From Spiroplasma cantharicola (lineage in GTDB: Bacteria; Bacillota_I; Bacilli_A; Mycoplasmatales; Mycoplasmataceae), in the NCBI RefSeq assembly GCF_001281045.1, contig NZ_CP012622.1:310001-374000 (forward strand): a DNA stretch of 64,000 bases, written 5' to 3'. The position numbers were made by a program, and so were the translations under genes. The notes beneath the pieces are model-generated. The model was not told where the DNA came from. It did not search any database and worked only from the letters and a program-made list of their open reading frames with translations. Positions 20,288 through 56,349 of this stretch are shown here, in pieces; position 1 is the first letter of the stretch, and every line of letters starts with the position of its first letter.

Positions 20288-21151
20288 ATGAGAAAATTAT
20301 TAACAATTTTAGGAGCTGTTAGCTTAGTGGCTACATCAAGTTCTAGTGTAATAGCATGTAACAATCCAGTACCACCACCTCCTGTTGAGAAAGTGGATTT
20401 AACAGATGAATTATTAAAAGAGTTTGTTAAGGAAAATAATGAATTTAGCTATGAAGGACCTTTTGTATTTGAAGAAGGGTACTTATTTAGCGATAAAAGT
20501 ATTAGCACATACTGAATTTTAGGAACTTTAGCTTTAACAAAATTTTATGATTCAATTAATGAAAATTTTAATTATGATGGTTTTTCATTCATTGGAGGTA
20601 GCGCAGAAATTGTTGATAAAACAATTGAGAGCATTAAAAATAATGTAAAATATACATTTAAAGTAGGTTTTTCTTATAGAAGTAATAATAAATTTAACCA
20701 AGAACAAAATGATAAATTATTTTTTAATTTTACTTTTATTCAAACAAAAAAATATGACAATCTTGAATATTTAAATAAATTTTTCAACTTTGTAATAAAT
20801 CAAGATTTTTATGAAAATAATAGAGGTATGAGTACTTCAAAAAATAAAAAAATTGATATATTTCAGACAATTAGAGTTCGACTAACATCAAAAGCATTAG
20901 AAGAAATTGCTGACAAAACAAAAAAAATTGAAAAGTTAGAGGAAGAATTTATTAATGGTTTTAAAAATGATGAAGGAACTCAATCAAAATCATTTTTGAA
21001 CTCAGTAAAAATTAATATTAAAGATTTTGATAAGTCTGAACTTGACGAATATAGAGATACCTATAACCTAGATTTAAAAATTGCATTGAAAGATAATATA
21101 AGTATATTTATAAATAAGAAATTAAATATAATTTTATCTAAAAAAGGTTAA
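20288..21151 (+). CDS. Lipoprotein, first copy of a tandem pair
   Basis: The 287-residue protein begins with a signal peptide ending at lipobox Cys24 (SVIAC), followed by a short Pro-rich stretch (NNPVPPPPVEK). The remainder is charged, without recognised domains. The start ATG has AAAGGA at 20274-20279; the frame extends further upstream, but the signal peptide fixes this start. The second copy follows 60 bases later with a nearly identical first 50 codons. Likely an outer-surface protein of unknown role. Confidence 0.88.
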
Positions 21152-21211
21152 ATGAAAATTGGAAAATAATTATCAGAAATTGAAATAAATAGTATAGAAA
21201 AGGAAAATATA

Positions 21212-22069
21212 ATGATAAAATTATTAACAATTTTAGGAGCTGTTAGCTTAGTGGCTACATCAAGTTCTAGTGTAATAGCATGTAACAATCCAGTACCACC
21301 TCCTGTTGAGAAAGTGGATTTAACAGATGAATTATTAAAAGAGTTTGTTAAGGAAAATAATTAATTTAGTTATGAGGGACCTTTTATATTTGAAGAGGGG
21401 TATAAAATAAATAATAGTATAACTAGTACAAAGTGATTTTTAGGTCATTTAGGTTTAACAAAATTTTATGATTTAATTAATGAAAAGTTTAATTACAAAG
21501 GATTTTCATTTCTAGGAGCTTCAGCAGAACTTCTAAATTATGAAAATAGTGTTATTAAAAATAATACTGAATATACTTTTAATTGTAAATTTAGTTATCA
21601 AAGTAATAATAAATTTAATGAAAGAGATAACGATACATTACCTTTTATTTTTAAATTCACTCAAACAGAAAAATATGAACAAAAGGAATATTTAGAACAA
21701 TTATTCGGTACTGTAATTAATCATCGTTTTTATAAAAATAATGAGGGAATGAGCACTTCAAGTTCTGAAAAAATAGATATTTTTAATAGTTTATCAATTG
21801 ATTTAACTACAAAAGAGCTAGATCAAATAGAAGAAAAAAATGATAAATTGAAGGAATTGGAAAATAAAATTACTAAAAATATTAAGGCTACAGAAGAATC
21901 TCAGGAAAAATCAATATTAAATTTAGTAAATATTAATGTAACTGATTTTAAGAAAATGGATTTTGATCAATTTAAAGATGTCTATAAGCTAGATTTAAAA
22001 ATTTCTTTAAAGACAGATAATAGTGTATTTATAGTTAAAGAATTAAATACAACTCTAAAAAAAGAGTAA
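21212..22069 (+). pseudogene. Lipoprotein, second tandem copy, broken by a nonsense codon
   Basis: This is a paralogue of the preceding lipoprotein with the same leader and lipobox. Codon 51 is TAA (21362-21364), where copy 1 has GAA, so one base change explains it. Beyond the stop the frame stays open for 235 codons and still aligns with copy 1 throughout (for example GMSTS... and KIDIF segments), so loss is recent, or translation restarts downstream. An in-frame ATG at 21749 has GAGGGA just upstream but would give a protein without signal peptide. As read, the gene can make only a 50-residue stub. Confidence 0.8.
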
Positions 22070-30262: not shown

Positions 30263-30310
30263 AGTGATTGAAAATATTAAGTTTAATCACTTCTTTTTTT
30301 TTTTTTTTTT
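30263..30310 (+). terminator. nadE terminator with a T17 tract
   Basis: A 7-bp stem AGTGATT/AATCACT (30263-30269/30285-30291) is followed by TTC and an uninterrupted run of 17 T (30294-30310). The run directly abuts the promoter of the lipoprotein cluster. Confidence 0.8.
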
Positions 30311-30318
30311 GATAAAAT
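30310..30318 (+). promoter_or_regulatory. Extended -10 of the lipoprotein cluster, abutting T17
   Basis: TGATAAAAT matches an extended -10 (TGnTAnAAT). No -35 match was found at the usual distance; the T17 tract occupies most of the would-be spacer. The position is 22 bases before the first lipoprotein ATG. Confidence 0.5.
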
Positions 30319-30340: not shown

Positions 30341-31423
30341 ATGAAAAAATTATTAGCAGTACTTGGTTCAATAACATTAATAACTTCAAGTTCATTTACA
30401 GTTGTATCTTGTTTTGGAGGTAAAACAGACACATCAGAAGATAAAAAAACAACTTGAACTGATGAAGAAATTTTGCAGAGATTTGGTTCATTAGAAATTA
30501 ATCAATTAGAAAATGGTGATTTAGAGCTATCTTCAAAAGAAGATCACTTTAAAATTTGATCAGGATCAGATGATGGAAATAAGTATCAAAGAGTTGTTAA
30601 AAGTCAGGATGTAGAAGGAATTAAAGCTAATTTTTTATATGATAGTTTACTTCCACCAGAAGCAAGTTTAGAAAATCCATTTGGAATTGAATTGATGTCA
30701 GCATTTTATGTTGGTAAAAGTGAAGAGGAAGTTAAAAATGCATTTCCTAAATCACACAGTAAAACTGTATTAGAATTTGGCTCAGAAATGACATATGATA
30801 ATCAATTTAAATGAAGAAATAAAAATGCTTTTTCAATATTTTTAGGTTCAGGACCAAGAGAAGGTAATACTTTTTCATGTACAAGAATGTGATCTAAAAC
30901 AATAAAAGTAAAAACTAATCAAGGAGAAGATATGTATGTAGGCTTATTTTCTCTATATGTAGATTATTTTGTAGGATATGTAACAACTAATTTAAGTTCT
31001 TGAATGAAAGATTTTTTTGAAGAATATAAAAGTCAATTAAAGTCTCCTAATTTAGAAATTGTAGAGGAAGTAAATCAAAAACAAGAGATTATTGCTAATA
31101 AGGATAATCAACATTTAAAATTAAAATTGAGTAATGCTGAGTTTACATTTAATGATTCAATTAAATATAAAAATGATGAAAATAGAAAAATTAATGCAGC
31201 ACTTAATTTATATCTCAATAATAAAATTTGAAATCATTGAGAAGAATTTAATTATAAATATGAAGACTCAGATTATGATGGATTTAACTTTTTTGAAACA
31301 ATTGACTCAGAAAAACCTAATAGTGATAATCATTATAATTATGGTTTTGAACTATCAGGTCCAAATCAAAAAAGATGAGATTATAATAGTATAATTTATA
31401 CAAAAATAGATATAGTAGAATAA
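30341..31423 (+). CDS. Lipoprotein A1 of a tandem triplet
   Basis: The 360-residue protein has a typical Spiroplasma lipoprotein leader (MKKLLAVLGSITLITSSS) and lipobox ending at Cys24 (VVSC), followed by Phe-Gly-Gly. The mature protein starts with an acidic TTWTDEEIL region and continues with a conserved GSGPREGNTFSCTRMW segment. The last residues (RWDYNSIIYTKIDIVE) are shared by all three copies. No domain was recognised. SD AAAGGGG. Upstream lies the T17 tract. Confidence 0.9.
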
Positions 31424-31445
31424 CTAAATTAAGGGGAAAAATAAA

Positions 31446-32549
31446 ATGAAAAAATTATTAGCAGTACTTGGTTCAATAACATTAGTAACTTCAAGTTCAT
31501 TTACAGTTGTATCTTGTTTTGGAGGTAAAATAGACCCACCAGAAGATAAAAAAACAACTTGAACTGATGAAGAAATTTTGGAAAGATTTGGATCATTAGA
31601 AATTAATCAATTAGAAAATGGTGATTTAGAGTTATCTTCAAAAGAAGACCACTTTAAAATTTGATCAGGATCAGATGATGGAAATAAGTATGAAAGAGTT
31701 GTTAAAAGTCAGGATGTAGAAGAAATTAACACTAATTTTTTATATGATAGTTTACTTCCACCAGAAGCAAGTTTAGAAAATCCATTTGGAATTGAATTGA
31801 TGTCAGCATTTTATATTGGTAAAAGTGAAGAGGAAGTTAAAAATGCATTTCCTAAATTACACAGTAAAACTGTATTAGAATTTGGCTCAGAAATGACATA
31901 TGATAATCAATTTAAATGAAGAAATAAAAATGCTTTTTCAATATTTTTAGGTACAGGACCAAGAGAAGGTAATACTTTTTCATGTACAAGAATGTGATCT
32001 AAAACAATAAAAGTAAAAACTAATCAAGGAGAAGATATGTATGTAGGCTTATTTTCTCTATATGTAGATTATTTTGTAGGATATGTAACAACTAATTTAA
32101 GTTCTTGAATGAAAGATTTTTTTGAAGAATATAAAAGTCAATTAGATTCTCCTTATTTGAAAATTCAAGAAGATATAAATCAAGAAATCAATGATACTAA
32201 TGCAAATAATCAGCATTTACATTTAAGATTTGAAAATGCTAACTTTAAATTTACTCAAAAAATTAATTATAGAGAAGATGAAAATGAAGAGATAGAAACT
32301 ATGAAAGTATCAGAAGCATTAAATTTATACCTTTTGCATCAAATTTCATTACATCATTATGGATTTAATTCTAAAAATGAAAAATCAGATTATAGTGGTT
32401 TTAAATTCAATTGGGATTTGGACTTAGAAGATCCTAATAAGGAGGATTATGATAATCATTATAATTATGGTTTTGAACTATCAGGTCCAAATCAAAAAAG
32501 ATGAGATTATAATAGTATAATTTATACAAAAATAGATATAGTAGAATAA
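31446..32549 (+). CDS. Lipoprotein A2 of a tandem triplet
   Basis: The 367-residue paralogue is almost identical to A1 over its first 230 or so residues (to SWMKDFFEEYKSQL), differs strongly over about 90 residues (about 232-325), then becomes identical again from about DNHYNYGFELSGPNQ to the end. The differing part carries an insertion (EEIETMKVSEALN) relative to A1. It starts 22 bases after A1 with the same leader and SD region. Same lipobox Cys24. Confidence 0.9.
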
Positions 32550-32568
32550 CTAAATAAAGGTGAATAAA

Positions 32569-33693
32569 ATGAAAAAATTATTAGCAGTACTTGGTTCAAT
32601 AACATTAGTAACTTCAAGCTCATTTACAGTTGTATCTTGTTTTGGAGGTAAAATAGACCCACCAGAAGATAAAAAAACAACTTGAACTGATGAAGAAATT
32701 TTGGAGAGATTTGGATCATTAGAAATTAATCAATTAGAAAATGGTGATTTAGAGTTATCTTCAAAAGAAGACCACTTTAAAATTTGATCAGGTTCAAATG
32801 ATGGAAATAAGTACAAAAGAGTTATTGATAGCGAAGATGTAGAAAAAAATAGTGTTAATTTTTTATATGATAGTCTACTTCCAACAGGAGCAAATTTAGA
32901 AAATCCATTTGGAATTGAATTGATGTCTGCATTTTATGTTGGTAAAAGTGAACAGGAAGTTAATACTGCACTTGCAAAATCTCACAGTGATGCCGTTAAA
33001 GAATTTGGCTCAGAAATGACAAATAATAATCAATGAAACTTGAGAGAAAAAAATGCTTTTTCAATATTTTTAGGTTCAGGACCAAGAGAAGGGAATACTT
33101 TTTCATGCACAAGAATGTGATATAAGACTATAAAAGTAAAAACTATTCAAGGTGAAGATATGTATATAGGCTTATTTTCTCTATATGTAGATTATTTTAT
33201 AGGATATGTTACAAATAATTTAAGTTCTTGAATAAAAGATTTTTTTGAAGAATATAAAATTCAATTAGAGTCTCCTAATTTAGAAATTAAAGAGCTTGTA
33301 AATGAAAGTGCAAATATTAGTACAAATCCCAATAACCAACATTTAAATTTAAAATTTTCAAATGCTAATTTTAAATTTAATGGGATAATGGAATATAAGA
33401 GAGATGAAAATTCAGAACTTGAAAGTATAAAAATTTTTTCAGCACTTAATTTATATATTAAAGATAAAATTTGAAATCATTCGTATGAATTTAATTCTAA
33501 ATATGAAAACTCAAATTATAAAGATTTTTTATTCGATGATAGAAGCGATTTAAATGATCCTAATAATGATCCTGAGACACATTATAACAATGGATTTGAA
33601 ATATGAGGTCCAAACAATAAGAGATGAGATTATAATAGTATAATTTATACAAAAATAGATATAGTCAACAAAGAGGAAAAAAATAATTTTTAG
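32569..33693 (+). CDS. Lipoprotein A3 of a tandem triplet
   Basis: The 374-residue paralogue matches A2 in the leader and the first 80 residues, then diverges moderately (for example VIDSEDVEKNSVN and NTALAKSHSDAVKEF), with a further variable block at about 240-340. It ends with the common WDYNSIIYTKIDIV plus an extra NKEEKNNF tail. SD AAAGGTG. It closes the cluster before a terminator. All three probably share one transcript. Confidence 0.9.
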
Positions 33694-33697
33694 ATTA

Positions 33698-33728
33698 AAA
33701 ACTTCAACTTTAATAAGTTGAAGTTTTA
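33698..33728 (+). terminator. Terminator of the lipoprotein triplet
   Basis: A 13-bp stem AAAACTTCAACTT/AAGTTGAAGTTTT with loop TAAT, followed by T-rich DNA. Confidence 0.88.
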
Positions 33729-56313: not shown

Positions 56314-56349
56314 CAATTTTTAATTAAAATTGTTTTTTTTTTTTTTTTT
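56314..56349 (+). terminator. Terminator with a T17 tract
   Basis: A 7-bp stem CAATTTT/AAAATTG with loop TAATT runs into 17 consecutive T (56333-56349), then further T-runs broken by single G. Confidence 0.8.

What the first reader, a model, noticed from the sequence alone, without database searches (positions are those of the whole stretch)
30341..33693. Mosaic triplet of lipoprotein genes
Seen: three tandem paralogues with the same leader, lipobox and C-terminal WDYNSIIYTKIDIV. A1 and A2 are nearly identical over the first 230 residues and again at the end, but differ in a block of about 90 residues; A3 shares the ends and differs in two blocks. Identical flanks with divergent centres are expected from gene conversion among tandem copies, a route to surface variation in mollicutes (established for several mycoplasma lipoprotein families). 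No domain was recognised.
Basis: partly seen in the sequence, partly recalled or inferred. Interest (0 to 1): 0.6.

Follow-up and report, generated by a model that had tools for sequence, protein, structure and literature searches.

The report
Recombining tandem lipoprotein genes in Spiroplasma
Three neighbouring surface-lipoprotein genes of a Spiroplasma have exchanged their ends while one central block stays different in each copy, and relatives show they are the survivors of a larger, undescribed cluster of surface-protein genes that has mostly been lost here.

Summary
A1 (30341-31423), A2 (31446-32549) and A3 (32569-33693) are complete code-4 lipoprotein genes, 19-22 bp apart. A1 and A2 are 98% identical in DNA over codons 1-232, 68% over codons 233-330, and 100% at the end. 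Synonymous divergence is 0.35 in the block and 0.029 in the flank (p=6e-6). A faster-mutating block is an unlikely cause: in single-copy orthologues of two sister species it is as conserved as the flanks. Recombination that homogenised the flanks after the split from those species is the best explanation. Block dN/dS is about 1.2, not shown to exceed 1. Copy number at this locus is 3, 1, 1 in three related species. The two large genes are paired at about 20 loci in the family, with small lipoprotein genes beside them. At the window's locus only the small lipoproteins remain. Function is inferred: surface lipoproteins of an undescribed surface module; orphan immunity proteins are the main rival. 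Switching within a population is untested, and antibody evasion is an unlikely driver in an arthropod host.

The parts
30341..31423 (+). A1, lipoprotein gene, 360 aa, code 4
   Evidence: NF038029 leader above cut-off
31446..32549 (+). A2, lipoprotein gene, 367 aa
32569..33693 (+). A3, lipoprotein gene, 374 aa
31037..31330 (+). divergent block of A1 (codons 233-330)
   Evidence: 68% nt to A2, 73% to A3; dS 0.35 and dN 0.44 to A2
32142..32456 (+). divergent block of A2 (end approximate)
33265..33579 (+). divergent block of A3 (end approximate)
32794..33093 (+). second, milder divergent block of A3 (codons 76-175)
   Evidence: 84-85% nt to A1/A2, against 96-99% for codons 1-75
30294..30310 (+). 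T17 tract, both the tail of a nadE terminator-like hairpin and directly 5' of a -10-like element
30310..30318 (+). TGATAAAAT, extended -10-like element; the same element lies upstream of the first gene of the cluster in G009 and upstream of the lipoprotein gene in G003
33698..33727 (+). intrinsic terminator-like hairpin after A3, closing the putative A1-A3 operon

Best explanation
A1-A3 are a small tandem array of membrane-anchored surface lipoproteins that evolves by duplication and homologous recombination (gene conversion or unequal crossing-over) between copies. The 5' 230 codons and the 3' end are homogenised, while a C-terminal block of about 98 codons stays or becomes different in each copy under weak constraint. 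In relatives the gene is the last of a cluster: membrane protein, 840-aa lipoprotein, 780-aa exported protein, small lipoprotein. At this locus the first three genes have been lost and the lipoprotein gene now follows the cluster's original promoter region. Shown: mosaic structure, relative timing, orthology, the cluster and its loss. Inferred: surface exposure, one transcript, and a role as the variable, contact-making part of a surface complex facing the host or other microbes.
For: A1/A2 flanks dS 0.029 and block dS 0.35; divergence from the G009 orthologue is dS 0.45-0.7 in the same parts, so the flanks are far younger than the species split and the block is nearly as old. G009/G003 single-copy orthologues are 98% identical in block and flanks alike, so the block has no high intrinsic rate there. 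Conserved synteny nadE - lipoprotein gene - 163-aa gene in G000, G003 and G009, with the full cluster in G009. The -10-like element TTGATAAAATGAATTTGAAAGG precedes the membrane-protein gene in G009 but the lipoprotein gene in G003, whose spacer also seems to keep the end of the exported-protein gene. Three tandem copies with a 5'-conserved pattern in G019, and other tandem lipoprotein arrays with it in G000 and relatives. A sister-species pair has 3 against 9 copies of a comparable array, with 100%-identical duplicates. The 840/780 pair has lipoprotein genes beside it at the about 20 loci examined.
Against: No strain or population data, so recombination is inferred from one genome plus other species. 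dN/dS of about 1.2 in the block was not tested against 1 and is close to it (pN 0.33, pS 0.28). The block tree groups A1, A2 and A3 (support 0.82), so part of the block divergence may postdate duplication and reflect fast change rather than retained old sequence. Surface exposure and function are untested, and the structure model failed (mean pLDDT 37). Small lipoproteins at the different loci share mostly the leader; homology beyond it was shown only for some.
Confidence: 0.72

Rival explanations
1. Orphan immunity array: the 780-aa exported protein and/or the 840-aa lipoprotein act against competing bacteria, and the small lipoproteins are immunity proteins, kept as diversified tandem copies after the effector genes were lost, as for tipC and esaG arrays.
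For: Small lipoproteins sit beside the large exported pair at the about 20 loci examined and are often tandem. Where the large genes are gone (G000, G003 and G019 in this family; the second window locus) lipoproteins remain. In G002 each lipoprotein copy is preceded by the exported gene or a C-terminal copy of it. The tipC pattern in Streptococcus (lipoprotein leader, conserved ends, variable centre, recombination) is alike (PMC9484751).
Against: No toxin domain in the large proteins. Their C-termini are not polymorphic: the four C-terminal copies in G002 are 95-97% identical, and two sister species are 97-100% identical there. One partner is itself a lipoprotein.
Confidence: 0.15
2. Antigenic or phase variation in the mycoplasma sense: the array is reshuffled and switched within a population to vary the surface.
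For: Mosaic copies; a T17 tract next to the -10-like element, one of 34 T16-T21 tracts in the genome, some of them between TTG and TA-rich -10-like sequences upstream of lipoprotein genes. Poly-A promoter tracts switch vlp genes of M. hyorhinis (PMC10502178).
Against: No population data. The A1 tract is also the tail of a terminator-like hairpin (-7.9 kcal/mol) and is absent from G003 and G009. No separation into expression site and donors. An arthropod host has no antibodies.
Confidence: 0.1
3. No recombination: a recent duplication followed by strong diversifying selection on one block.
For: dN/dS in the block is 1.2-1.3 for two of three pairs; the block tree groups the three copies.
Against: Selection on amino acids should not raise synonymous divergence twelvefold in the block alone, and the abrupt return to 100% identity at the 3' end is hard to explain without recombination.
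Confidence: 0.03

Closest known systems
tipC immunity-lipoprotein arrays of Streptococcus and esaG arrays of S. aureus (PMC9484751)
   Same: Tandem paralogues with conserved blocks at the ends, variable regions between, recombination between copies, and copies kept without the cognate effector (esaG); TipC also has a lipoprotein leader.
   Different: No known toxin was found here; the neighbouring exported proteins have no toxin domain and conserved C-termini. A type VII system was not looked for.
Tandem-like lipoproteins (lpl) of the S. aureus nuSa-alpha island (as described in PMC9484751)
   Same: Tandem lipoprotein genes whose copy number changes by recombination through a shared block.
   Different: Conserved block central in lpl, terminal here; no sequence comparison was made.
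Mycoplasma variable surface lipoproteins (vlp of M. hyorhinis, vlhA of M. gallisepticum and M. synoviae)
   Same: Mollicute surface lipoproteins in multigene families; vlp has homopolymer tracts at promoters (PMC10502178).
   Different: vlp vary by slippage and repeat number, vlhA of M. synoviae through one expression site recruiting pseudogenes (PMC2825196 abstract); here three full ORFs stand behind one putative promoter and switching is not shown.
Spiroplasma citri adhesion-related proteins (ScARP/SARP1; PMC2386487, PMC3485318)
   Same: Large exported Spiroplasma surface proteins comparable in size to the 780/840-aa partners, which by eye contain recurring short aromatic-rich motifs.
   Different: ScARPs are plasmid-borne with a C-terminal transmembrane helix; the partners gave no match in the plasmid collection.

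Membership tests
Mollicute lipoproteins (NF038029 leader) | leader with lipobox scoring above the curated cut-off of 24 bits | tested here: met
   37-38 bits for all three
MOLPALP family (TIGR04547) | whole-protein score of at least 65 bits over the 807-position model | tested here: not met
   35-43 bits, leader only
Tandem paralogue arrays evolving by intergenic recombination | adjacent paralogues, shared conserved blocks, significant recombination signal | tested here: met
Tandem paralogue arrays evolving by intergenic recombination | copy number and block combinations vary among strains of the species | not testable with these tools
   one genome per species held; between species the copy number varies
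Mycoplasma-type phase/antigenic variation | variants within a clonal population | not testable with these tools
   no reads or strains
Mycoplasma-type phase/antigenic variation | homopolymer or repeat tract in the promoter spacer | tested here: inconclusive
   T17 beside TGATAAAAT, but also a terminator tail, and absent in G003/G009
Toxin-immunity arrays | neighbouring gene encodes a toxin with a polymorphic toxic domain | tested here: not met
   no toxin domain recognised; C-termini conserved
ScARP/sarpin adhesins (for the partner proteins) | sequence similarity to ScARP | tested here: inconclusive
   no tblastn match in the plasmid collection, but it was not verified that ScARP plasmids are in it

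The most novel reading that the evidence does not exclude
The window triplet is the orphaned, diversified lipoprotein part of an undescribed Spiroplasmataceae surface system (840-aa lipoprotein or membrane-anchored protein + 780-aa exported protein + tandem small lipoproteins, sometimes + a membrane protein) that acts in microbe-microbe conflict, the small lipoproteins being immunity or recognition proteins whose arrays outlive the effector.
Probability: 0.15. Interest if true: 0.75.

Novelty: new member of a known kind. Interest (0 to 1): 0.42.

Why it matters
Recombining tandem lipoprotein arrays are known in mycoplasmas and firmicutes; no report for Spiroplasma came up in the searches made. 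The triplet, its single-copy orthologues in two related species and its tandem relatives in a third make the timing of recombination measurable. The cluster behind it, at about 20 loci in the family and without any recognised domain, is an unstudied set of surface genes in a genus of insect symbionts and pathogens.

Tried and rejected
Pfam, NCBIfam and PDB profile searches of the lipoprotein and both partner proteins: nothing beyond the leader. AlphaFold2 from the three window proteins: mean pLDDT 37, not used. Two genome-contig scans and one viral-contig scan by back-translated patterns found no relatives; whole-genome search found them. Plasmid search with the partner proteins: none. Several translations were made one base off and are void. 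The idea that the partners are MOLPALP lipoproteins was dropped. High intrinsic mutation rate of the block was rejected with the G009/G003 pair. The T17 tract as a proven phase switch was rejected for lack of evidence.

Full report
What is there. The window lies at 310001-374000 of a single 1,179,577-base contig. A1, A2 and A3 are intact ORFs with TGA read as Trp. They are separated by 22 and 19 bp, each with its own ribosome-binding-like sequence, and closed by a terminator-like hairpin at 33698-33727. nadE (named from its sequence) ends 80 bp upstream.

The mosaic is real. By block, A1/A2 DNA identity is 96, 98, 100, 68 and 100% for codons 1-75, 76-175, 176-232, 233-330 and 331-360. A2/A3 is 99, 84, 93, 69 and 87%. 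Synonymous divergence A1/A2 is 0.029 in codons 1-232 and 0.35 in the block (Fisher p=5.6e-6); dN/dS in the block is 1.27 (A1/A2), 1.25 (A1/A3) and 0.76 (A2/A3), against 0.5-0.7 in codons 1-232. Against the G009 orthologue, synonymous divergence of all copies is 0.45-0.7 in codons 1-330. The flanks of A1 and A2 are thus much younger than the species split, the block nearly as old. The rate control is the pair G009/G003, single-copy orthologues that are 98% identical in block and flanks alike; the block is not a hot spot by itself. The block tree still groups A1-A3 (support 0.82), so the copies may have arisen after the split and then changed fast, with later homogenisation of the flanks. A2 and A3 share their first 75 codons (99%), while A1 and A2 share codons 76-232 and the end, so probably more than one exchange tract is involved.

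Relatives. Full-length members were found only in four other species of the genus, among 60 relatives searched: one copy each in G009 and G003, three tandem copies in G019 (one with an in-frame stop), and decayed copies in G013. In G000, G003 and G009 the gene lies at the same place, between nadE and a 163-aa gene. The G019 triplet shows its own mosaic, 5' part conserved and 3' part divergent.

The lost cluster. In G009 three genes stand between nadE and the lipoprotein gene: a 632-aa membrane protein, an 838-aa lipoprotein and a 779-aa exported protein. The same order, decayed, is in G013, and G019 keeps a fusion remnant of the membrane protein and the exported protein before its three lipoproteins. 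The four-gene order is therefore probably older than the reduced state. In G003 the promoter-like element that precedes the membrane-protein gene in G009 stands before the lipoprotein gene, with what looks like a scrap of the exported-protein gene end between; in G000 it stands before A1. Since G003 and G009 are the closest pair, loss probably happened at least twice, and lipoprotein genes survived each time. Searches with the 838-aa and 779-aa proteins show the pair side by side at about 20 loci in the family. The loci examined have small lipoprotein genes beside the pair, 1 to 9 of them, often tandem. Most of these small lipoproteins match the window family only through the leader; for one group the comparison after removal of the leader gave 94% probability, so a common origin of all of them is not shown. 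The window's own genome keeps one such pair at 196-202 kb with five tandem 182-aa lipoproteins. A second locus in the window (20290-22069) repeats the story: an intact lipoprotein gene and a pseudogene copy, 97-99% identical in the first two tenths and 58-73% after, where G003 has three lipoprotein genes plus the large pair. Turnover is fast: a 163-aa lipoprotein array has three full copies in G003 and eight full plus one truncated in G009, two of them identical.

Working model. Tandem lipoprotein genes duplicate and recombine; the leader and N-terminal part are kept alike, and the C-terminal block varies. The simplest role is that of the variable surface partner of a larger surface complex. 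The host of a Spiroplasma is expected to be an arthropod (general knowledge), so antibody escape is not a likely driver; binding partners, phages or competing bacteria are alternatives. The rival I rate highest is orphan immunity, because tipC arrays look alike and the lipoproteins outlive the large genes, but no toxin domain or polymorphic tip was found.

Promoter tract. A T17 tract precedes the -10-like element of A1. The genome has 34 T-tracts of at least 12, all 16-21 long. Some lie between TTG and a TA-rich element a short way upstream of a gene, including lipoprotein genes, and others follow hairpins. The A1 tract has a hairpin before it and a -10-like element after it, so its role in expression is open.

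Limits. One genome per species, no strains, no reads, no expression data, no usable structure.

Noticed in passing
window 20290-22069: Second tandem lipoprotein locus: intact gene 20290-21151 and a pseudogene copy 21212-22069 with an in-frame TAA, nearly identical in the first part and divergent after; G003 has three copies plus the 917-aa and 697-aa partner genes here.
   Followed up: partly
window 30294-30310 and 56333-56349; genome-wide list: All 34 T-tracts of 12 or more in the genome are 16-21 long, none 12-15. Some are terminator tails; others sit between TTG and TA-rich -10-like elements upstream of genes, including two 605-aa lipoprotein genes: possible phase-variable promoters.
   Followed up: partly
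L068 3080-11468 (G000 193-202 kb): Five tandem 182-aa lipoprotein genes with a divergent island near the 3' end, next to a 939-aa and a 710-aa gene of the partner families.
   Followed up: partly
L072 2855-18026 (G000 737-753 kb): Seven tandem ~610-aa lipoprotein genes with 3' ends 59-65% identical between some copies; two have identical T17 promoter-like tracts.
   Followed up: partly
L046 4474-14874 (G002): Four ~344-aa lipoprotein genes, each preceded by the exported-protein gene or a C-terminal copy of it; these C-terminal copies are 95-97% identical while most of the lipoproteins are far more divergent.
   Followed up: partly
L043 6379-7554 (G019): An ORF fusing the start of the membrane protein to the C-terminal part of the exported protein, a deletion scar of the cluster.
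   Followed up: no
L041 8981-13836: The 779-aa and 838-aa proteins appear by eye to contain recurring aromatic-rich motifs (such as YYELFGEKFDSKKEAIDYF); not tested statistically.
   Followed up: no
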